Shown here one piece after another: positions 51,976 to 62,371 of a stretch of DNA of 64,000 bases; position 1 is the stretch's first letter, and every line of letters begins with the position of its first letter. Origin of the DNA: an uncultured Clostridia bacterium (GTDB lineage Bacteria; Bacillota; Clostridia; Oscillospirales; Ruminococcaceae); NCBI GenBank assembly GCA_944386475.1, contig CALXBH010000072.1:1-64000 (forward strand). Reading direction: 5' to 3'. A program made the translations under genes and the position numbers. Under the pieces are notes generated by a model. That model did not search any database, was not told where the DNA came from, and saw only the letters and a program-made list of their open reading frames with translations.

Positions 51976-54900
51976 CTATTTCCGTTTCCGTTTGCCGACA
52001 ATCACAAGCAATCCAAGTGCTGCGCCAGCGCCCAGCAGGGCGATGTCAAACACAGGATTGTGGCCTGTGACAGGAACCTTGACGTCATCGCCAGCTCCGT
52101 CGCCGTCGGTGTCGCTGCCGCCAGGGGTGTTGCCGCCGGGGGTGTTGCCGCCAGGCTCGTCGGTGCCAGGCTCATCTGTTCCAGGTTCGTCGGTGCCGGG
52201 ATCTTCCGTTCCGGGATCGCTGGGCTCAGAGGGCTCAGAAGGATCACTGGGCTCGGAAGGATCGGAGGGTTCACCGTTGATGGAATCATTGAAGGCATCC
52301 AGCGCCGCCTGCAGAGCAGCCGTCGCGTCGTCGATCTCCTGCTGCGAACGGTAATCCAGATCCGCAACCGCCTGGGCGTCAGCAATCGCCGCTGCTAAAG
52401 CGTCTTTTGCCGCCTGGGTGGTCTGGCCTTCACCGTCGCCGACCTCGGTAGCATCCAAGGTCTCCTGCGCGGAAGCGATCAAATTCTCCAGCTCGGTGTC
52501 GCTGACGGTGACAACCGCGTTGCGGAAGTCTTCCACAGCCTGATTGAGAGCAGCGATCGCATCAGCGATCTCCGCGTCAGAGGGCTGTGCGGAATCCGCT
52601 ACTGCCTGAGCGGCAGCAATCGCTTCTTCCAGTGCGTCTACCGCAGACTGCGGATAGTCGCCGTTCTTGTCGCCGATGACAATGTTCTCATCGTCCAGCA
52701 CAGCCTGCGCGTTGTTAATCGCCTCTTCAAGCTGTGCTACGCTGATGGTAACAACCGTAAAGGTGTATTCAGAAGTCTCGCCCTGTTCATTTTCCACGAC
52801 GATTCTCACTTCTACATCCTCTTCAGATTTCGCTACAAACAGGCCATCCGCGCCTACTTCTCTCTCTTCGCCGTTCACATAAACCGTGTAACCGGTGCCG
52901 AAAGCGTTCATCACGATGTTGCTGAAGGTGACGCCCGCCTCGTTGTTGTTAGCGGTAACCGTGTAGTTGTGCGTAGCGGGAGCAAAGTCAGGGCTCATGG
53001 TGCCGCCGGAAACGTCCACGCCGGTAAGAGAAGGCGTTCCTTCGGTGGGCAGCGAGTATTCCGCGTTGGTGCCGTACACTTCAACCTCCGTAAGAGCCGA
53101 CCACTTGTTGGCCTCAGGAGTGAGATAGAGTTTCAGGCTGGTGGTTTTGACTGTATCAGTGCCAAAGATCTGGCTCACATCAAAGGTCTGAGTAGCATGA
53201 GTCGTCTCAATGGTGATGTCTTTTCTGGTGCCGTCAGAAAGCTCTACAGAAGCAGAGGTAAAGCCGCCGTCATGGCCTCCGGACGGATTGGCTTCATCAA
53301 AGTCGCCGCGGATGATGATGTTGAAGCTCTCAACATTTACATCCCGTCCAAAGTCGATGGTATAGGTGGACTCAATATTCTGACTGGGGCCCCAAGACTG
53401 TCTCGGATAATCGCCGTGGCCGTCGCGGTTGTTGACAAAACCGTCGATGGCATTGCGAACCAAGAACTGAGCATTGGTGTTGTTTTCATGCGTTCCTGTT
53501 GCAGTCGCATGAGGATATGCACCCTCTGCATTAGCGGAATCATAGGGGTTCACAGCCAGGTTCTGCACTTCCTGCATCTCCGCCTCGGTGGGAATCCGGG
53601 CGATGACCGTCTGAGTGCTCTGGTTGCGGATAACAGGCGGGAAGATCTGATTCATTTTGTCAGGCAGGGTGTAGGTAAACACGCCGTCCGGCACATAAAT
53701 GAGCGCCTCTTCCATACGGCTGTCAAATGCAAAGTACAGATACTGTACGCCTTCCGGCAGGGTTACCGTTACGGTATCGCCGGTGGCAACCTTCTTATCA
53801 ACTTCCATGACAAGCTGGCCGGTGCCGGAAACTTCTGCAATCTGCGTACCCGCAGCGTTTTTGTAGTTCATGCTGAAGTCCAGGTTAACAGGGGCCACGC
53901 CGCCGTTTGCCTGCAGGGCTTTGGACTGCTCGTCAAGAGTCTCGTAGAAGTCACGCTTGTGACCTTTTTCCTCGTACTCTCTCATATCGTTAGCAGACCA
54001 GTTGTTCGCTTCCTCGTAGTCACCGCGGAAGGGAACGCCCATATCGATCCAGGCCCGCAGAATGTTCAGATCGTCTTCGCTGATTTCAACGCCGTAATGG
54101 TCGTTTTCCAGCATGGTAATCACAGCACTCTGGGAAGAACCGAACTGATAGGGATCCAAAACTTCGCACTGGCTCATAGCAGAGATCCAGTTGGTGATGG
54201 AGTTGGTGGAATTACCTTTGAACTGAACGCCGGTATTAGTAGAACCGGTCAGCACCAGATAAGACAGCGAGTAGTACATTTTCTCACGCTGGCCAAGCAC
54301 CTGGTCGCCTTCAAGCGAGAACTGAGGCTCATCCGCTGAAGCTCTTTCCTGGATGACAAAGCCACAATCCATATACTGGCCACCGGAGGTCTGAGAACCG
54401 CTGATTGCCAACACGTTGGTACCCTGCTTCATGGCATCCATAAAAGCATAGGTAACGTCGATCTTAAGATACTGAGTAGAATAGCCGTCCAGATAGGTGA
54501 GCCGCTGGCCATTCAGATAAATGGTGGGGGACTCGTCGTAGGCAACATTAGCGTAAACTTTATAGTTGCCGCTCTGGATCTTCTGATAGATATCCGAAGA
54601 AATGGTGAAATCTTTCCGCAGCCAGATGTTGCTGGTGTCCCACTTGGTATTGGAAGCGCCACCGGTGAAGCCGTTGTTGCCAAAGCCGCCGGTTTTGTTC
54701 ATCTGCCAGCCGTTGCTGGTAGAAGGCGTGTAATCGGTGGTGTACCAATCCGCCGCAGGCTCGGTGGTTCTAAACGCCCAGCCGCTCTGGGTAATGCCTA
54801 GAACGGTTTCATAAGGCCGCTCTACAGCAGCGGATTTTTCCTCCAGCTTCAGGGAAACGCCCATATAACAACCGCCATCAAAGTTTTCAGCATAGATAGC

Positions 54901-57240
54901 AATGGTGTTCTCGCCTTCGTGCAAAATATCCGCTACTTTATTAGTGATATCAAAGTCTTTATAGGTGGTAATGTAATTGGTATTGTTATTATTGCTCTTA
55001 TCAAAAACCTGTACGCCGTTGATGTAAACCCGAGGATTTTCATCATAGGCCATGTTCAGAACAAAAGAGCTGTTTTCAATCTGCTCCTGGGTTACCGTAA
55101 AGGTGTTGCGCAGGTACAGATATCCGTCTTTGTTAAAGCAATCCCAGTTGGTATTCTGACCGCCGGGAGGGGTATCGCCACCGCCAAAGGGACCTTTACC
55201 CTCCTGCCAGCTGTCGTCATTATAATTTTCCGCCATCCAGTTGCTGTCGGAAATAGCGCTGGAAGACTGATAGTACTTAAAGGTGCTGTCCTTTGCCATA
55301 ATAACCGTTGCGTCATCTGCGGTATCACTATCAACAACCTGGGCGTTGATCATCTGTTCCGCTGCAGCAGTGTCGTTATGGCAGCTAACACAGCTCTTAT
55401 CCAGGATAGGCTGTACCATTTCGGTATAGCTGAATCCTTCGCCGTTGTTGGAAAGGTACTCTGCATATTCCTCGTCGGTCATGTTCATCCAGCTTTCCTG
55501 CTGAATGGACTGAACGCCCTTTCTCATGGCATCCGTAACCTGAGAACCGGAGGGAGGAACGGTGTTCTTATCCTCGTGGCAGCCCACGCAGGAGAAGGTT
55601 TCGCCGGGCATCAGGGTGGACCAGCTTCTCATGGACTGCACAACCTCGTTGTTTTCATCCAACAGCTGGAAGTACAACGGGGTATCCGCCGGCGCCGAGA
55701 ACATGACGGAACCGTCTGCCTCTACTGGCACCACGCCAAGTATTCGCTTGACGTCCCACGCGCCGTTACCGGTTGACACCGGCGTAAACGGGTCGGAGGT
55801 ACCGGTACCGGAACCCTGGTTTGCACCAACCGCAGAGGTACGGAATTCCAGCGCGACAACACGCAGGTATTTGATATCGCCGTTTGCCGCACGGTCATAG
55901 CCTTCCATACCTTCGCCGGCGTATACATCGCCAACGTAGTAGGTGCCGGTGTTGCTGGCATAGTTCACCATGCTGGGACGGCTGAACAGGTCGCGCTGCA
56001 TGATCGGGACGATCTGGGAAGCAGCAACAGTACCGGTAGCCGCACAGATTTCGGTTTTCTCGCCGGTTTCGGTGTTCATGTAGTAAATGCCGAAACGGGT
56101 GTTCGCCTTGTTGTTGGAATCCCAGCCGTCAGGAGCATAGGAAACCAGGAACTCATGATCGTTTAACGCATAAGGATACCGATAGAGCGGACCGCTCTGG
56201 TTGCGGTCGTCCACGTTGTGCTCGCTCTGGATACCTTCGTCGTTGGGGAATGCATAGGTGATGGCGTCATCGTCGTTTCTGCCTTCGGCAGTGTCGATGA
56301 TGACCATCTTGCCGGCCTGCCATACATGGTGGCCGCTTTCGATGGCAACATATTTAGAGTTGGTCCCAGGGATTTCACGGGCATGGAGCAGGGTGGTGGT
56401 ACGGCCGGTGCCGTTGCCCCACAGCTCGGTCTGGTTGGTGCCGTCCTGCTGCATCTGGAACAGGCCCTGGATAAACATCTGGTTACGGTCGTTGTAGTCC
56501 CAGCGGGTGTAGATCACACGTCCGTCGCTGGTGACGGTAGGATAGGTGGTGTGAACCTGATCGTATCCCACACGGGTGATGTTGCTGCCGTCTGCATCGC
56601 AGATGTACAGGTTGGAAACCGGCACATGCCAGCAGTCGATGTTCTGGATAATACGGGAGGAGCTGAAGACAATCTTGCCGTTGGGCAAAAACTTGCCTTC
56701 AAAGTCCGCAACACCCGAACCATAGGTAAGCTGTTTCAGTGTAGACTCCGGATTGGCAACCGTCAAATCCATGGTGTACAGATGATAGTCATCTGCAGAA
56801 TTTTCTCTGTAGGAGAACAGAACAGTAGTGCCGTCTGCGGAAACATCCGGGTCACGGATGACGCCGGTATTGGTAGAGAGCAGCACGGTCTCGGTGGTCT
56901 CAAGCTGACCGGAAGCGGTGGTTTCCACATCCAGCCGGATCAGCTGAGCGCCGGGACGGAAGCTGATGTCGCCGCCGTCGTTTCCTTCAGGGCCATGCTG
57001 GCCGTTCATTTCATCGCTTAAGCCCTCGGTATAAGCGTAGTGGGAACCGCCCAAAGGCTTGTTGCGCACCACGATGTAGCTGTTTGTCAAATCGGTGATC
57101 GAGCTGTAATCGCCGCCGACGTTGCCAACAACATTGGTCGTTCTGGATACCGATTCCGCAATCGAAGAAAGGGGAGCGATAACCGAAAGGACTAAAGTCA
57201 ACGATAAAACAATTGACCAGATTCGTTTCTGTTTTTTCAT
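51976..57240 (-). CDS. HzsA-like (hydrazine synthase alpha-like) wall-anchored di-haem protein
   Basis: 1,754 aa, exported by an N-terminal signal peptide. Rough domain order: TolB/PD40-type propeller (about 90-480, PDVSADGTTVLFSYR); haem domain with VPVEADGSVMFSAPADTPLYFQ, SMRSWSTLMPGETFSCVGCHE and CxxCH at 551-555; second CxxCH at 617-621 (KSCVSCHND); two inserted jelly-roll modules (about 645-800 and 815-950); an HzsA-type C-terminal segment ending AWIDMGVPFRGDY (about 1065); an F5/8-type discoidin module (about 1235-1400); a cadherin-like module; two FIVAR-like helical repeats (about 1500-1650); a Glu/Ser/Pro/Gly-rich spacer; and VPVTG plus membrane segment plus KRKRK, a sortase-like anchor. 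True HzsA is about 800 aa, so this one is enlarged. It is last in an operon with an HzsBC-like gene 17 bp upstream. Substrate unknown. Confidence 0.85.
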   Translation of the reverse strand: MKKQKRIWSIVLSLTLVLSVIAPLSSIAESVSRTTNVVGNVGGDYSSITDLTNSYIVVRNKPLGGSHYAYTEGLSDEMNGQHGPEGNDGGDISFRPGAQLIRLDVETTASGQLETTETVLLSTNTGVIRDPDVSADGTTVLFSYRENSADDYHLYTMDLTVANPESTLKQLTYGSGVADFEGKFLPNGKIVFSSSRIIQNIDCWHVPVSNLYICDADGSNITRVGYDQVHTTYPTVTSDGRVIYTRWDYNDRNQMFIQGLFQMQQDGTNQTELWGNGTGRTTTLLHAREIPGTNSKYVAIESGHHVWQAGKMVIIDTAEGRNDDDAITYAFPNDEGIQSEHNVDDRNQSGPLYRYPYALNDHEFLVSYAPDGWDSNNKANTRFGIYYMNTETGEKTEICAATGTVAASQIVPIMQRDLFSRPSMVNYASNTGTYYVGDVYAGEGMEGYDRAANGDIKYLRVVALEFRTSAVGANQGSGTGTSDPFTPVSTGNGAWDVKRILGVVPVEADGSVMFSAPADTPLYFQLLDENNEVVQSMRSWSTLMPGETFSCVGCHEDKNTVPPSGSQVTDAMRKGVQSIQQESWMNMTDEEYAEYLSNNGEGFSYTEMVQPILDKSCVSCHNDTAAAEQMINAQVVDSDTADDATVIMAKDSTFKYYQSSSAISDSNWMAENYNDDSWQEGKGPFGGGDTPPGGQNTNWDCFNKDGYLYLRNTFTVTQEQIENSSFVLNMAYDENPRVYINGVQVFDKSNNNNTNYITTYKDFDITNKVADILHEGENTIAIYAENFDGGCYMGVSLKLEEKSAAVERPYETVLGITQSGWAFRTTEPAADWYTTDYTPSTSNGWQMNKTGGFGNNGFTGGASNTKWDTSNIWLRKDFTISSDIYQKIQSGNYKVYANVAYDESPTIYLNGQRLTYLDGYSTQYLKIDVTYAFMDAMKQGTNVLAISGSQTSGGQYMDCGFVIQERASADEPQFSLEGDQVLGQREKMYYSLSYLVLTGSTNTGVQFKGNSTNSITNWISAMSQCEVLDPYQFGSSQSAVITMLENDHYGVEISEDDLNILRAWIDMGVPFRGDYEEANNWSANDMREYEEKGHKRDFYETLDEQSKALQANGGVAPVNLDFSMNYKNAAGTQIAEVSGTGQLVMEVDKKVATGDTVTVTLPEGVQYLYFAFDSRMEEALIYVPDGVFTYTLPDKMNQIFPPVIRNQSTQTVIARIPTEAEMQEVQNLAVNPYDSANAEGAYPHATATGTHENNTNAQFLVRNAIDGFVNNRDGHGDYPRQSWGPSQNIESTYTIDFGRDVNVESFNIIIRGDFDEANPSGGHDGGFTSASVELSDGTRKDITIETTHATQTFDVSQIFGTDTVKTTSLKLYLTPEANKWSALTEVEVYGTNAEYSLPTEGTPSLTGVDVSGGTMSPDFAPATHNYTVTANNNEAGVTFSNIVMNAFGTGYTVYVNGEEREVGADGLFVAKSEEDVEVRIVVENEQGETSEYTFTVVTISVAQLEEAINNAQAVLDDENIVIGDKNGDYPQSAVDALEEAIAAAQAVADSAQPSDAEIADAIAALNQAVEDFRNAVVTVSDTELENLIASAQETLDATEVGDGEGQTTQAAKDALAAAIADAQAVADLDYRSQQEIDDATAALQAALDAFNDSINGEPSDPSEPSDPSEPSEPSDPGTEDPGTDEPGTDEPGTDEPGGNTPGGNTPGGSDTDGDGAGDDVKVPVTGHNPVFDIALLGAGAALGLLVIVGKRKRK

Positions 57241-57257
57241 TATTCTCAGCCCCTTTC

Positions 57258-59456
57258 TTAGTATACGATTCTATAATCGGTGGCCAGCTTGACGCTGTCG
57301 TCCGCCGCGTCGGTAATCGAAATCACCGCGTAAGAGCCGGACGCCAGATCGCTGGGCACATCGATTTCAGTGGAGATCTTCGCTACATCACCGACGCCCA
57401 TGTCCTCGAGGGTCTCGGTTACGCTGCTGCCGGAAATTTCATTGCCCTCAGCATCATACAGGGTGAAGGTCACCTTGGCCTGCTGTGTGGTTTCCAGCTG
57501 CTTGCGGATGGTGATGGAGTTGATGGTGCTGCCAGCCAGCAGCTCGTTGACTCCCTCGGTGCCGTCAGAAGCAGTAGAGCGAACCTGCTCGACGCCGTAA
57601 TACTCGTCCTGATAGCCGATAGAGCCAATGAAATTGGTCAAATCGTCGATCTGAGCATCGGTCAGGCCGTGATTCTCGGGCAGAGAAGCGACAACGGCAT
57701 CACGCAGGCTTGTAATAGAGCCATTGAAATAGTAGGGAGCCGAACGCCAGAGTTCGACCAGAGTAGCGGTATCCAGGTCACGGTCTTCCCAGCTATAGGC
57801 GTCTTTACCGTCCACATAGACAGCAGACTCCTCATGGAATTCCATATCCGTGTACAACGGAGCCGGATGGCAGGTTGCACAACCCTGAGATTCAAACAAT
57901 TCTTTGCCTCTCTCCGCCGATTCGGTCAAGGTGCCGTCACGGTTGAGGTAGGGGCTCTGCACGGGAGTTAAGGATTTCAGGTATTCATCCATGCAGGTGA
58001 GGTCGGATTCAGTGAGGCTGGTGGTCTGAACACTGGCGCGGACGTTGTCTTCCGCGGTCGGTTCTGCACCAGTTGCCAGGACCGGAGGCGTACGGTGAGA
58101 ATATACTAAAGACTTGGTGCTCTTAGGAGTACCGGCGCCGTCGCCCAGCTCATCCCAGTTGAAGCCGTCCGATCTCCCTTCCGGATGGCAGGAAGCGCAG
58201 CTCTCCCACTGCTGGTAACCTTTGGTGCCGTCGTTCCACAGGGTTTCGCCGGTGCGAACTGCGTTTGCCTCAGGCTGCTCGCCCAAAGAGATAGCGCCGG
58301 TCACCGCGTTGTTTTCCAGATCAACAACGGCTACATTGCCGGTGAAGTACTGACATACATACACGTTGCCATTCGCCACGGCAATCTCACGGTTGCCTTC
58401 GCCGTCCAGATCGATCTTGTTGCGCAGGCCGTCCAGGAAGGGGAGGTAGTCGGCGATATCCGCCACGGTGGCTACATCCTCATTTTCGCCGGCCGCCACT
58501 TCGTCGATCCGGTCCATAAGTTCGTTGGTGTCGATGGTGAAGATCTGATGGGCACCGGAAATAGACACCACCAGGTCGTCGCCGTTCATGGCAACGCCCC
58601 AGGGGTTGGGAGCGCCCAGTTCCACCTCATCCAACAACACAGAGGTCACCAGTTCGTCGGTGTTCGCGTCGATGATAGAGATGGCGTTGGTGTTGACCCA
58701 GCCTCTGTCAAGCTGAGAAGTGGGGTACGCATACCGTCCCAGCACATGGGAAACGTATACATACTCGTCATCAGAGGTGATGCTCTTAACATTGTTGGAG
58801 CCGTTGGTCAGCTGGATCTGATCGACCACAGTGTTGGTTGTCGTGTCGATAACAGCAACTCTGGCAGCCGTGGTTCCTTCTTCGGCAGTGGCAGCATCCT
58901 CCGTAAGGTGTTTGGCTACATAGATCTTGTCGCCCACGACCGTCATCGCCCGGGGTTCCCTGCCCACGTCGATGTCGTCGCCAACTTTGTCAAGAGTGTC
59001 TTTGTTGTAAACGGATACATTGTTGGTGAAGCGGTTGGCCACATACAGGTTGTCGCCCACCACGACGCCCGCCACAGGGGTATGCCCGGCTTCCGCCGTG
59101 TCAACCACGTCCATGGTAGCGGGATCGAGTTTCGCAACCATACCAGCCAGCTCGCCGTAAAGGGCGTAAACGTCATCGCCATCGGTGACAACGCCGCTGA
59201 CCATCTGGCCGCCCGCGTCCCACGTGTCCGTCACGCTGCCGCTCGCCAGAGAGGCCTTGTAGACCTTCCCGAGAGTGGCGTCCGCGACGAACGCGTTATC
59301 TCCCGAAATCGAAATATCCGAAGGGGAGATGTAGGGCTCGTCGTAGCTCGTATAGTCCACGCTGGATGCCAGCGTATAGAAAGCCAGTCCCGCTGCAACG
59401 GCAGTCACAGCGACAGCGGCTATCAGGACTTTGAGCTTGGTGTGTTTGTTTTTCAT
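57258..59456 (-). CDS. HzsBC-like protein: beta-propeller fused to di-haem MauG/CCP-like domain
   Basis: 732 aa with an N-terminal membrane/signal segment (VLIAAVAVTAVAAGLAFYTL). Residues about 45-400 are a YVTN-type seven-bladed propeller with repeats such as VVVGDNLYVANRFTNNVSVY. They include RYAYPTSQLDRGWVNTNAIS and ELGAPNPWGVAM, which match what I recall of HzsB-type proteins. Then come haem motif 1, CASCHPEGRSDGFNWDELGD (CxxCH 420-424), motif 2 GKELFESQGCATCHPAPLYTD (CxxCH 526-530), and the MauG-like RSAPYYFNGSITSLRDAV and HGLTDAQIDDLTNFI. A C-terminal beta domain (about 630-732) is extra. HzsB and HzsC are separate in Kuenenia but fused in some anammox genera. Activity is unknown. Confidence 0.85.
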   Translation of the reverse strand: MKNKHTKLKVLIAAVAVTAVAAGLAFYTLASSVDYTSYDEPYISPSDISISGDNAFVADATLGKVYKASLASGSVTDTWDAGGQMVSGVVTDGDDVYALYGELAGMVAKLDPATMDVVDTAEAGHTPVAGVVVGDNLYVANRFTNNVSVYNKDTLDKVGDDIDVGREPRAMTVVGDKIYVAKHLTEDAATAEEGTTAARVAVIDTTTNTVVDQIQLTNGSNNVKSITSDDEYVYVSHVLGRYAYPTSQLDRGWVNTNAISIIDANTDELVTSVLLDEVELGAPNPWGVAMNGDDLVVSISGAHQIFTIDTNELMDRIDEVAAGENEDVATVADIADYLPFLDGLRNKIDLDGEGNREIAVANGNVYVCQYFTGNVAVVDLENNAVTGAISLGEQPEANAVRTGETLWNDGTKGYQQWESCASCHPEGRSDGFNWDELGDGAGTPKSTKSLVYSHRTPPVLATGAEPTAEDNVRASVQTTSLTESDLTCMDEYLKSLTPVQSPYLNRDGTLTESAERGKELFESQGCATCHPAPLYTDMEFHEESAVYVDGKDAYSWEDRDLDTATLVELWRSAPYYFNGSITSLRDAVVASLPENHGLTDAQIDDLTNFIGSIGYQDEYYGVEQVRSTASDGTEGVNELLAGSTINSITIRKQLETTQQAKVTFTLYDAEGNEISGSSVTETLEDMGVGDVAKISTEIDVPSDLASGSYAVISITDAADDSVKLATDYRIVY

Positions 59457-59512
59457 CCCTTTAACCTCTCTTCAAAAAATTTTGTATACGCTGCCACATA
59501 TACAATAGGGAA

Positions 59513-60277
59513 CTAAGAATAAGAGTGCTCGCCGGAAGCGCCGAAGATGTTGACGCCCTGGAAAGCCATAAACAGTGCGACGATTCCGAGAATCGTAAAG
59601 ACGTACTGGAACTTTTGCAAGGATTTATATTTGCGGCAATGCAGGTACAAAGCGTAGAACACCCAGGTAACCAGCGCCCAGTTTTCCTTGGCGTCCCAGG
59701 ACCAGAACTCCGTCCAGACCTGATTCGCCCAGATAGCGCCTAAAAGGAGCCCCGCCGTCATAAAGGGGAAGGCGACCAAAACCAGGTTGTGAATCCCTCT
59801 GTCCAAGTTTGCCCGGTTGCCTTTGTTGAAAAACCAGATCACACTCAGCACAGAGGCCACCGCGCACAGGGAATAGGAAAGCATATAGCAGAAAACGTGG
59901 GGGACAAAATACACCGACTGCAAGGCCGGCACAAAATGCCAGATCAGCGTCGCGTTCATGATACAGCAGCCGATCATCACCACACCGGAGCACAAATTAA
60001 AATACGGGGAAACCCACTCATCCTTGTGGACCAGCACCATATAAACATTTGCCAGCGTAAAGCAAAGCCCTAAAAAGGTGAGCACCTGGTACATACTGAC
60101 AAAGGGAACATAGCCGTTGTTCACCCAGTTGGTAGCGACCACCACGGCGTTTAAAACCCACGCCGCGCCGTTTGCTATGTAAGCGGGCACCCGCTTTTTG
60201 CACCAGAACAAAATTGCCGACAGAAAATATCCCGCCGCAGCGACGCCCAAGAGGATTTTCAAAACCAAAATGCTCAT
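59513..60277 (-). CDS. CcsA/ResC-like cytochrome c biogenesis protein
   Basis: System II haem-handling membrane protein, 254 aa. The tryptophan-rich haem motif is present as WANQVWTEFWSWDAKENWAL; the flanking conserved His residues appear in YFVPHVFCYMLSY and in the end FGASGEHSYS. About eight membrane segments. It overlaps the ResB-like gene by 4 bp (ATGA), so translation is coupled, and ends 56 bp before the HzsBC-like gene. It should attach haem to the CxxCH motifs of the two downstream products. Confidence 0.93.
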   Translation of the reverse strand: MSILVLKILLGVAAAGYFLSAILFWCKKRVPAYIANGAAWVLNAVVVATNWVNNGYVPFVSMYQVLTFLGLCFTLANVYMVLVHKDEWVSPYFNLCSGVVMIGCCIMNATLIWHFVPALQSVYFVPHVFCYMLSYSLCAVASVLSVIWFFNKGNRANLDRGIHNLVLVAFPFMTAGLLLGAIWANQVWTEFWSWDAKENWALVTWVFYALYLHCRKYKSLQKFQYVFTILGIVALFMAFQGVNIFGASGEHSYS

Positions 60278-61227
60278 TTGGCATCACCCGCTTTCTTTTT
60301 GGAACCGGGCTTTTTCGTCTCATTTTTCCCGGAGGCAGCGGCCTGTCTTGGACGAACAAAGCAGGCGATAAAGGAACCGACGATAATCATCACCATGCCC
60401 ACCGTCACAATGTACTCGCCGGGGTCATATTTAAAGATGAAAGCGGCGGCGTTTTGCGTTTCGTCATAGCTCATCAGATAAATCTTCCAGCCGTTGACCC
60501 GCAGGGGATGGTTGACCGAAATGGTGTCCTCCCGGCTCTCCTGAGTCTCGTTGTTGACGATGGTCACATCTCCCAGATAGGATTTCACCGAACTTCTGGG
60601 ATTGCCGACAATCGAGCCGTCTTCCGTCAGATTGACAACCTGATATTCACCGGCGTCGTCTACAAGGTCTTCCACCGTCTTCTGGCCATATTCGCCGAAG
60701 TCGTAGATTCCTTCGCTGTTAATTTCAATATCCGTCGCCAGCTGCTCTTCGGCTACGCCCTCTTCGTTCACCCGGTAGATGTCGTACACCGGCTCGTAAT
60801 ATTCCACCGCAAAATCAGTGACGCCAAACCGGAAGGAACTGAAATTTGCTACATAATTTTCGCCTTTGGTGGGATTCGCTTTTACAAGCTGGTGATAAGC
60901 GGAAGCCGACGACCCCTGCTCATTCACCGGGTAGGCCCCCTGGATTTTGATTCCGGCCATGTAGTAGATCATGCTGCCCAGCAGCACGGCGACTAGGCCG
61001 ATATGCAATAGGTAAAAACCGATTTTTTTAATGTTAAACGGGAATACAAACAGGCAGATAACCTGCGCGATCACAAAAATCCCCAGCAGGACAATTAAAC
61101 CCCAAATGACCAGGTTGCTCTGAAAATCTGTGTCTATGTGGAAAAACACCTGGCGGGATCCCAAAACGGCGACCACCAGTGCAATCACTGACATCACAAC
61201 CACAGAAATCTTCATGATTAATTTCAT
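60274..61227 (-). CDS. ResB-like cytochrome c biogenesis protein
   Basis: 317 aa, with three N-terminal membrane segments, an extracytoplasmic domain of about 180 residues, a fourth membrane segment (IVTVGMVMIIVGSFIACFV) and a basic tail. NHPLRVNGWKIYLMSYDETQN and the following KYDPG are the ResB/Ccs1 hallmark before the last segment. It is the partner of CcsA in System II and first gene of the operon. AAGGAGA lies about 14 bp before the ATG, a long spacing. No ResA or CcdA thiol-reducing partner is found in the window. Confidence 0.88.
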   Translation of the reverse strand: MKLIMKISVVVMSVIALVVAVLGSRQVFFHIDTDFQSNLVIWGLIVLLGIFVIAQVICLFVFPFNIKKIGFYLLHIGLVAVLLGSMIYYMAGIKIQGAYPVNEQGSSASAYHQLVKANPTKGENYVANFSSFRFGVTDFAVEYYEPVYDIYRVNEEGVAEEQLATDIEINSEGIYDFGEYGQKTVEDLVDDAGEYQVVNLTEDGSIVGNPRSSVKSYLGDVTIVNNETQESREDTISVNHPLRVNGWKIYLMSYDETQNAAAFIFKYDPGEYIVTVGMVMIIVGSFIACFVRPRQAAASGKNETKKPGSKKKAGDAK

Positions 61228-61558: not shown

Positions 61559-62371
61559 ATGAACGAAGTCATTTATTGGTACTCCCACTCGCTGGAAGGG
61601 GAATATCCTTTTCATGTTTCCCTGGCCGGACGAACCGACGGCGACAACTATCTCATGGAGCGCAGCCGTTCCGCTACCTTTGTGGCCGCCTATGTCAAAA
61701 CCGGCTACGGCTTTCTTACATACGAGGACAAAGATTACCGCCTTTCCCCGGGAGATGTGTTTTTGCTGCATGCCCATTCCCGCCACCGGTACGGAGGGGA
61801 CAAACAGAACCCCTTCACCTTTTTGTGGTGCAATATTTCCGGGGTGCTGATTTCTTATCTGCTCAACGCCTATGAGCTGGGAGATGTAAATGTCATCTCC
61901 GATCCGGGAGCTCTGCAGCTGTTTGAAGAGCTTCATCAGATCTGCCGGGAAAACACGGACGCCAATATTGTGGACGCCCAGTGCGCCGTGAAATTTCACG
62001 AAATCGTCGCCTCGGCCGCCCAAAGGGTCAAAGAAGAGGTGCAGACCGAATCCCTGGCCCAAAAGATCAAGCATCTTATTGACAGCAATCTCAAACGCTA
62101 TCTGACCGTTCATGAGGTCGCCGAGCGGCTGGGCTATTCTGAAGCGCACATCAACCGGGTATTTAAAGCCGCCTACGGGGAGCCCCCTTATCACTACATG
62201 CTCCGGACCAAGCTGGTTTCCGCCCAAAAGCTTTTGCAGGGGACCGACCTGCGGGTTAAGCAGGTGGCGGAGTTATTCGGCTTTAACGACGAATTTCACT
62301 TTTCCAACGCCTTTTTCAAGCAGTTCGGCTACCGCCCCAAGCAGGTGGAGCGGCGTAAAATCCCGGAATAA
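61559..62371 (+). CDS. AraC family transcriptional regulator, divergent to the HZS-like operon
   Basis: 270 aa with an N-terminal cupin sensing domain (VKTGYGFLTYEDKDYRLSPG, FLLHAHSRHRYGG) and a C-terminal two-HTH domain (YLTVHEVAERLGYSEAHINRVF, VKQVAELFGFNDEFHFSNAF, FGYRPKQVERR). AGGAGG precedes the ATG. Position suggests control of the ResB-to-HzsA-like operon; this is inference. The gene is monocistronic. Confidence 0.9.
   Translation: MNEVIYWYSHSLEGEYPFHVSLAGRTDGDNYLMERSRSATFVAAYVKTGYGFLTYEDKDYRLSPGDVFLLHAHSRHRYGGDKQNPFTFLWCNISGVLISYLLNAYELGDVNVISDPGALQLFEELHQICRENTDANIVDAQCAVKFHEIVASAAQRVKEEVQTESLAQKIKHLIDSNLKRYLTVHEVAERLGYSEAHINRVFKAAYGEPPYHYMLRTKLVSAQKLLQGTDLRVKQVAELFGFNDEFHFSNAFFKQFGYRPKQVERRKIPE

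What the first reader, a model, noticed from the sequence alone, without database searches (positions are those of the whole stretch)
51976..61227. Hydrazine-synthase-like operon in a Gram-positive fermenter-type genome
Seen: four minus-strand genes in tight order (4-bp overlap, 56 bp, 17 bp) encoding ResB-like, CcsA-like, a propeller plus two-CxxCH protein, and a larger propeller plus two-CxxCH protein. Known: anammox HZS has an alpha subunit (propeller plus two haems), beta (seven-bladed propeller) and gamma (two-haem MauG-like), with beta and gamma fused in some genera. Inference: this is a complete HzsA + HzsBC-like pair, four haems in all, packaged with its own cytochrome c maturation genes and surface-anchored. 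I know of no described function for such a locus in Clostridia.
Basis: partly seen in the sequence, partly recalled or inferred. Interest (0 to 1): 0.95.

Follow-up and report, generated by a model that had tools for sequence, protein, structure and literature searches.

The report
Hydrazine-synthase-like haem complex on fibre degraders
A likely gut-dwelling clostridial bacterium carries a four-gene set related to the hydrazine-making enzyme of anammox bacteria, and because relatives of these genes in other clostridia carry cellulosome-docking domains, the set probably builds a haem-based surface tool that works on plant fibre rather than one that makes hydrazine.

Summary
In detail: ResB-like, CcsA/CcsB-like, HZS-βγ-like and HZS-α-like genes lie in one minus-strand run with the stated spacings. 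The homology is real: the best solved-structure matches of both large proteins are Kuenenia hydrazine synthase (HZS), by sequence profile and predicted fold, though every NCBIfam HZS cut-off is missed widely. By its active site it is not an HZS: αTyr591 is replaced by Asn, γCys165/γAsp168 lie in a missing stretch, γHis144 is Ala. The second-haem histidine (αHis772) and the β tunnel loop are kept. A follows BC in 26 of 27 clostridial loci with room. In 295 genomes of the order, ResB above cut-off occurs in exactly the five that hold BC. Relatives point to plant fibre: dockerins on A-like tails, a cohesin gene directly downstream in two loci, and a separate clade (P. cellulosolvens, A. chartisolvens) with lectin and dockerin on the βγ protein; the window's own protein has no dockerin. 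Chemistry is inferred: likely a self-contained surface haem oxidoreductase acting on fibre; substrate and oxidant unknown. My searches of the open-access library listed no such clostridial or cellulosomal version.

The parts
60274..61227 (-). ResB-like system II cytochrome c maturation protein (short form, 317 aa)
   Evidence: Pfam PF05140 80.7 bits, cut-off 24.6; the only ResB match in the window's genome
59513..60277 (-). CcsA/CcsB-like haem-attachment membrane protein (254 aa)
   Evidence: Pfam PF01578 105.2 bits; NCBIfam CcsB 143.5 bits, cut-off 187.6
57258..59456 (-). HZS-βγ-like protein (732 aa): propeller, then MauG/CCP-like di-haem domain, then β-rich tail; N-terminal helix (signal or anchor, predicted)
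58698..58748 (-). residues 237-253 of the βγ-like protein: by my numbering the equivalent of the HZS-β loop 245-260 at the α-γ tunnel; overlaps the most conserved 17-residue stretch of the propeller (241-257)
   Evidence: 10 of 17 columns at >=95% against 29 of 334 elsewhere in the propeller
58185..58199 (-). CASCH haem motif, residues 420-424 (γI-like)
57867..57881 (-). CATCH haem motif, residues 526-530 (γII-like)
51976..57240 (-). HZS-α-like surface protein (1754 aa)
55573..55881 (-). HZS_alpha middle domain (PF18582), residues 454-556
55576..55590 (-). CVGCH haem motif, residues 551-555 (αI-like); Asn559 stands where HZS has the haem ligand Tyr591
55378..55392 (-). CVSCH haem motif, residues 617-621 (αII-like)
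54286..55308 (-). residues 645-985: insertion inside the αII haem domain, predicted mostly β-strand; sugar-enzyme β-sandwich type by profile
   Evidence: spacing 443 here, 79-133 in 31 non-clostridial rows; no Pfam and no useful PDB match with this stretch alone
54097..54099 (-). His1048, equivalent (within one residue) of αHis772, the distal ligand of haem αII
   Evidence: His in 118 of 121
52531..52737 (-). FIVAR domain, residues 1502-1570 (best of two)
52063..52077 (-). VPVTG, then hydrophobic stretch and KRKRK tail: sortase-type wall anchor (motif recalled)
   Evidence: position; sortases in the genome

Best explanation
The four genes encode homologues of both halves of anammox hydrazine synthase (an α-like and a fused βγ-like protein, each with two CxxCH haem motifs) plus two homologues of cytochrome c maturation proteins, and the pair is predicted to form a surface-anchored four-haem complex that likely does redox chemistry on plant fibre rather than making hydrazine. 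Shown: homology, gene order, co-occurrence with ResB in the order, loss of HZS catalytic residues, and sugar-enzyme-type or docking domains on relatives. Inferred: ResB and CcsA attach the haems outside the membrane. The α-like and βγ-like proteins join as in HZS, with the conserved β loop at the tunnel between the γI-like and αI-like haems. The γI-like (MauG/peroxidase-type) haem would activate a small oxidant such as peroxide or NO and pass a reactive intermediate or oxidising equivalents to the αI-like haem. That haem would act on a fibre-bound group held near it by the embedded sugar-enzyme-type sandwiches and C-terminal binding domains. In this genome the complex would be fixed by a sortase-type tail; in relatives by dockerin to cohesin.
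Against: No substrate, oxidant or electron partner is identified. The window's own α-like protein has no dockerin match. Cohesin genes are common in this order anyway (134 of 295), so their presence in the genome says little. Only 2 of 7 downstream genes scanned carry cohesin. L022, with 10 kb on each side, has dockerin but no CcsA or ResB in the locus. F5/8C-type domains can bind host glycans or other ligands as well as plant fibre (recalled). The PF00034 census is incomplete: it does not pick up the two motifs of A either. Complex formation was not modelled. The A model is moderate (pLDDT 82, pTM 0.67). The insert alone has no Pfam and no useful PDB match. Mirror correlation may reflect shared descent alone. 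In the class-wide sample BC and ResB share only the window genome.
Confidence: 0.45

Rival explanations
1. A true hydrazine synthase, or an enzyme joining two nitrogen atoms from NO and ammonium.
For: All three HZS subunit folds or profiles and four CxxCH motifs are present; the β tunnel loop and the αHis772 equivalent are kept.
Against: αTyr591 position is Asn in 117 of 120 A-like proteins with the motif; γCys165 and γAsp168 fall in a missing stretch in 27 of 27 clostridial and 48 of 48 other rows; γHis144 is His in 0 of 27 and 0 of 48. Scores are far below the NCBIfam equivalog cut-offs. NrfA absent in 25 of 25 handles. The hydroxylamine/hydrazine oxidoreductase family was not found, but that test had no working control.
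Confidence: 0.04
2. A surface peroxidase or NO reductase that protects a strict anaerobe from oxidants; the sugar-enzyme-type domains only place it in the mucus or on food particles.
For: The di-haem domain is MauG/CCP-like; no other PF00034 cytochrome found in the genome, which fits an enzyme fed by small molecules.
Against: Standalone peroxidases need no α-like partner or tunnel loop; a protective role does not readily explain dockerin on two different subunits in two clades.
Confidence: 0.2
3. An extracellular electron outlet: the four haems pass electrons from fermentation to an outside acceptor such as phenolics or humics.
For: Predicted surface multi-haem chain with its own maturation genes.
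Against: The four genes include no quinol or NADH electron donor and no further PF00034 cytochrome was found in the genome; the tunnel loop conservation is unexplained.
Confidence: 0.12
4. A MauG-like protein-modifying enzyme that matures a tryptophan- or tyrosine-derived cofactor on another secreted protein.
For: NCBIfam weak matches to MauG and MbnH families (27.8 and 26.0 bits).
Against: Those matches are far below cut-off (443.85, 362.85) and weaker than the HZS ones; apart from ResB, CcsA, BC and A no gene family recurs in more than 6 of the 29 clostridial loci.
Confidence: 0.07
5. A structural adhesin that keeps the haem domains as inert scaffolding.
For: Large size, FIVAR and binding domains.
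Against: Haem motifs intact in 120 of 120 βγ-like and 114 of 120 A-like proteins listed; ResB found with BC in 5 of 5 genomes of the order sample.
Confidence: 0.05

Closest known systems
Anammox hydrazine synthase (Kuenenia HZS α, β, γ; PDB 5c2v; βγ fused in Scalindua)
   Same: All three subunits recognisable, two haem motifs per half, β tunnel loop, αHis772 equivalent
   Different: αTyr591, γCys165, γAsp168, γHis144 absent; scores far below NCBIfam cut-offs; sugar-enzyme-type domains inserted in the αII domain; surface or cellulosome anchoring predicted; own CcsA/ResB beside it
HZS-like α and βγ gene pairs of Planctomycetota, Desulfobacterota and others (clades I-IV of Hagglund et al. 2025, PMC12758564; abstract, passages and section 8 read)
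   Same: Co-located α-like and fused βγ-like genes, HZS active-site residues lost
   Different: The main text has no match for 'Clostridia' or 'Bacillota' and one for 'Firmicutes' (suggested gene donors); it does mention 'Bacillus' among βγ homologues. Clades I-III have an FG-GAP gene; clade I has extra haems and is said to lack αHis772; clades II and III lack haem αII. Here: that His is kept, domains are inserted, maturation genes adjoin, relatives dock to cellulosomes; no FG-GAP gene flanks the window's operon (relatives not searched for it)
Di-haem cytochrome c peroxidase / MauG family
   Same: Similarity and motif spacing of the γ-like domain
   Different: Fused to a propeller, paired with an α-like protein; the Trp/His at the γHis144 position is Ala461 here
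Cellulosomal dockerin-bearing enzymes
   Same: Dockerin on relatives of either subunit; cohesin gene next to the pair in two relatives
   Different: Known catalytic dockerin proteins are hydrolases, lyases and esterases (recalled). A cellulosome review says lignin-oxidising enzymes have not been identified in native bacterial cellulosomes, while naming redox enzymes among atypical associated enzymes worth study (PMC12484212, passages)

Membership tests
Hydrazine synthase | α, β and γ subunit homology and folds | tested here: met
   (γ by sequence profile only)
Hydrazine synthase | NCBIfam equivalog score | tested here: not met
   α 54.5 of 800, βγ 62.9 of 1250, γ 56.7 of 625, β 43.9 of 560 bits
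Hydrazine synthase | αTyr591 as proximal ligand of haem αI | tested here: not met
   Asn in the window protein and in 117 of 120; role from PMC12607021 and PMC12758564
Hydrazine synthase | αCys303 with αHis587 binding zinc | tested here: inconclusive
   sequence alignment too weak there; His286, His304 and His305, invariant in 121 rows, lie in the same region by rough count. Not kept in all anammox bacteria either
Hydrazine synthase | αHis772 distal ligand of haem αII | tested here: met
   His1048, His in 118 of 121 rows; 16 residues before the WIDM motif here, 15 in HZS
Hydrazine synthase | γCys165 third covalent haem bond and γAsp168 | tested here: not met
   gap in 27 of 27 clostridial and 48 of 48 other rows
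Hydrazine synthase | γHis144 | tested here: not met
   Ala461 in the window protein; His in 0 of 27 clostridial and 0 of 48 other rows
Hydrazine synthase | β tunnel loop 245-260 | tested here: met
   residue 250 is Asp in 117 of 117, Glu or Asp in 47 of 48 other rows; whether it is the Mg ligand was not established
Hydrazine synthase | Hydrazine dehydrogenase / HAO in the same genome | tested here: inconclusive
   0 of 25 handles, but no control genome rang
Hydrazine synthase | Makes hydrazine from NO and ammonium | not testable with these tools
   needs protein
Cellulosome component | Dockerin on the window's own protein | tested here: not met
   no PF00404 match at E<=0.1 in either large protein
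Cellulosome component | Dockerin or cohesin on or beside relatives of the pair | tested here: met
Di-haem CCP / MauG | PF03150 above cut-off | tested here: not met
   22.7 of 25.6 bits in the window protein; above cut-off in L071 and L139
System II cytochrome c maturation | ResB and CcsA/CcsB pair | tested here: met
   Pfam cut-offs passed for both; the CcsB equivalog cut-off is not reached (143.5 of 187.6)

The most novel reading that the evidence does not exclude
Anaerobic fibre degraders own a haem-based machine for oxidative attack on plant cell walls: a four-haem complex of hydrazine-synthase kin, moved into clostridia together with its own haem-attachment genes and docked onto cellulosomes or the cell wall, doing without oxygen what copper monooxygenases and peroxidases do for aerobes.
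Probability: 0.25. Interest if true: 0.93.

Novelty: new variant of a known kind. Interest (0 to 1): 0.82.

Why it matters
Hydrazine synthase was thought to have no relatives outside anammox bacteria until recently; here is a clostridial clade that pairs both halves with dedicated maturation genes and fibre-type domains, in an order where the maturation protein ResB is otherwise not found above cut-off (5 of 295 genomes, the same five). If the complex acts on fibre, it would be a native redox component of anaerobic fibre degradation and of some cellulosomes, which a recent review says lack lignin-oxidising enzymes. It would also hint at what the ancestor of hydrazine synthase did. Cultured cellulolytic species carry homologues, so the idea can be tested now.

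Tried and rejected
Hydrazine synthesis rejected on residues. The two large proteins as chance propeller matches rejected: HZS chains rank first by profile and fold. A first idea that the γII haem had lost its distal ligand in Clostridia was dropped: the His of the DxHG stretch is missing in 27 of 27, but His541 (98 of 117, Tyr in 16) is an equal candidate. Genome-level enrichment of cohesin was tested and is not convincing: 20 of 25 handles against 134 of 295 background. HAO search uninformative. The pattern was mis-specified (CxCH, not CxxCH) and was not used. One search repeated at a stricter cut. The insert alone finds nothing in Pfam or at a useful E-value in the PDB. A structural ranking of the di-haem domain by itself was not obtained: the rows cover mostly the propeller. 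Rfam and tRNA scans of the window are empty. A class-wide sample found BC in 3 of 351 and ResB over cut-off in 4 of 351, sharing only the window: the other two BC genomes are of the divergent type (one examined, with a CcmF-like lyase), and three ResB genomes lack BC.

Counting notes. The 25 handles hold at least two repeated genomes (G091 with that of L035, by identical coordinates; G061 with that of L031, by equal BLAST scores), so about 23 distinct ones. In one search the fifth genome (G137) passes the cut-off only with its neighbours in the frame (23.3, then 26.2, cut-off 24.6). In one search loci without room were dropped from each count (27 of 29 clostridial kept). In one search, 27 of 29 clostridial and 48 of 51 other loci gave a usable row. 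In one search, one of 121 A-like rows (P0123) lacked the motif. In one search the WIDL pattern hits a decoy inside the insert in 6 of 21 clostridial rows; the 15 others all have the His, as do 27 of 31 non-clostridial rows; in the set, where decoys also occur, 42 of 114. Dockerin and fusion counts were read off the listed precomputed Pfam columns. One βγ-like protein of the list (P0091) also carries dockerin, so the split of dockerin by subunit is not strict. The permutation and Fisher tests do not correct for relatedness.

Literature searches behind the statement that no clostridial or cellulosomal version was listed: open-access library only. Papers seen: PMC12758564 (abstract, passages, section 8), PMC12607021 (abstract, start of introduction, passages), PMC12484212, PMC12063362, PMC13353379 (passages found by term); others as search listings only. 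[quoted passage not shown]

Full report
What is there. BC has CxxCH at 420 and 526, A at 551 and 617. A carries the HZS_alpha domain (E=5.7e-35) and FIVAR domains and ends in VPVTG plus a hydrophobic stretch and basic tail, a sortase-type anchor by recalled motif; the genome has two sortase matches. A divergent AraC-type regulator lies at 61559-62371.

Which active-site features survive. Ligand roles come from PMC12758564 and PMC12607021. Kept: CxxCH motifs; the αHis772 equivalent, His1048, His in 118 of 121 rows, 14-16 residues before the WIDL motif in the 15 clostridial rows where the true motif was hit (15 in HZS); the β tunnel loop, whose equivalent by my numbering (BC 237-253) has 10 of 17 columns at >=95% identity in 117 sequences against 29 of 334 in the rest of the propeller (Fisher p=1e-6, not corrected for relatedness), and residues 241-257 are the most conserved 17-residue stretch of the propeller. 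Lost: αTyr591 (Asn in 117 of 120); γCys165 and γAsp168 (gap in 27 of 27 clostridial and 48 of 48 other rows) and γHis144 (Ala461 here, His in none of the 75 rows). αCys303 could not be aligned. So it is HZS-like in build, not an HZS by its catalytic residues.

A unit, with its own haem-attachment genes. Of the 80 best loci of 481 in named genomes, 29 are clostridial. A lies after BC within 1 kb in 26 of the 27 with room; CcsA lies upstream in 23 of 27 and ResB is present in 23 of 27; in L020 both lie downstream; L022 has neither within 10 kb. The exception to pairing, L041, comes from the same isolate as L028, which has the pair. In 295 genomes of the window's order, BC occurs in 5, ResB above cut-off in the same 5 (one of them only with its neighbours in the frame), and the A core in the same 5 (12 further genomes match only the C-terminal part, profile positions 923-1233). 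By my count random coincidence would be 1 in 1.8e10, ignoring relatedness. In the class sample the picture is looser: BC 3 of 351, ResB 4 of 351, shared only by the window. In the window's genome, PF00034 matches are found only in BC, but that family does not pick up A's motifs either, so the census is partial. Outside the gut clade, 22 of 120 listed hits join the α-like and βγ-like halves in one chain, 20 of the 22 with four CxxCH. The clostridial BC rows form one side of a branch (28 rows, SH-aLRT 100), and A and BC distances mirror each other (r=0.83, 22 loci).

The fibre link. In the gut-type Clostridia the αII domain is split by a long insertion: spacing from the second haem motif to WIDL is 443 here, 259-453 in the 15 clostridial rows with the true motif (6 more hit a decoy), and 79-133 in 31 non-clostridial rows. 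By profile it resembles a stretch of a sialic acid esterase (7kmm, E=2.2e-5); in L035 it matches a rhamnosidase model, and in P0141 Pfam calls a GH2 sugar-binding domain inside it. A-like tails often carry F5/8C-type domains and, in 17 of 120 listed, dockerin; direct scans confirm dockerin above cut-off in L016, L020, L022 and L024. In L020 and L024 the gene directly after A (35 and 15 bp) encodes a cohesin; 5 other downstream genes scanned do not. A second clade, found through an unnamed 4.8-Mb single-contig genome of the class, has a CcmF-type haem lyase, an A-like and a BC-like gene, the last with Ricin-B lectin and dockerin; relatives listed include Pseudobacteroides cellulosolvens, Ruminiclostridium josui (a 646-aa sequence without the dockerin end) and Anaerobacterium chartisolvens, and 28 of 120 listed hits carry dockerin. 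The two clades are separate in a tree of the di-haem region (28 rows at 100, 13 rows at 99), and dockerin sits mainly on different subunits (one gut-type BC, P0091, also has it), so docking was likely acquired more than once. Against over-reading: cohesin is common in the order (134 of 295), and the window protein itself has no dockerin match. The window genome does hold five cohesin matches.

Mechanism (inferred). No other PF00034 cytochrome found and no electron donor among the four genes argue against a respiratory chain and for an enzyme driven by small molecules. The MauG/peroxidase-type γI-like haem would activate peroxide, NO or similar; the intermediate or its oxidising power would pass by the conserved tunnel loop to the αI-like haem, beside which sugar-enzyme-type sandwiches present fibre. 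I put 0.45 on the fibre-acting redox complex as a whole; the oxidant and product are open.

What is known. Hagglund et al. (PMC12758564) describe co-located HZS-like genes in Planctomycetota, Desulfobacterota and others, with lost active-site residues; the main text has no match for Clostridia or Bacillota, one for Firmicutes (suggested gene donors) and mentions Bacillus among βγ homologues. They report αHis772 absent in their clade I, whereas 27 of 31 non-clostridial rows here have a His near that spacing. A cellulosome review states that lignin-oxidising enzymes have not been identified in native bacterial cellulosomes, has no match for cytochrome or heme, and names redox enzymes among atypical associated enzymes to be understood (PMC12484212); another review mentions unvalidated LPMO genes in anaerobic cellulolytic bacteria (PMC13353379). 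Searches listed no paper on a clostridial or cellulosomal HZS-like complex.

Noticed in passing
L139:7381-9990 (unnamed 4.8-Mb genome, same class): βγ-like protein with Ricin-B lectin and dockerin, next to an A-like gene and a CcmF-type haem lyase; close relatives in cultured cellulolytic clostridia.
   Followed up: partly
22 proteins among P0277-P0313: Single-chain fusions of the HZS-α-like and βγ-like halves with three or four haem motifs; P0313 has the halves in reverse order.
   Followed up: partly
L020:8609-11056 and L024:9942-11272: Cohesin-bearing gene directly downstream of the dockerin-bearing α-like gene, apparently in the same operon.
   Followed up: yes
L016:17442-18485, L019:14894-15937: 347-aa gene directly downstream of the α-like gene in two Lachnospiraceae, no Pfam match at E<=0.05.
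   Followed up: no
window 61559-62371 (+): Divergent AraC-type regulator; related AraC genes lie in the fetched surroundings of the operon in 5 of 29 clostridial loci.
   Followed up: partly
L045-L048, L053, L058, L063, L071, L088, L092: Non-clostridial α-like proteins end in a VFNVGFRV-type tail, recalled as typical of formylglycine-generating-enzyme (sulfatase-modifying) domains; sulfatase-like genes (label from sequence, recalled) lie near in 6 non-clostridial loci.
   Followed up: no
L014:1-2729: A GH32-type gene lies about 9 kb before the α-like gene in the nearest relative.
   Followed up: no
window A residues 286, 304, 305 (also 67, 153, 230): Invariant or nearly invariant His in the α-like propeller, possibly a metal or substrate site near haem αI where HZS has zinc.
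   Followed up: no
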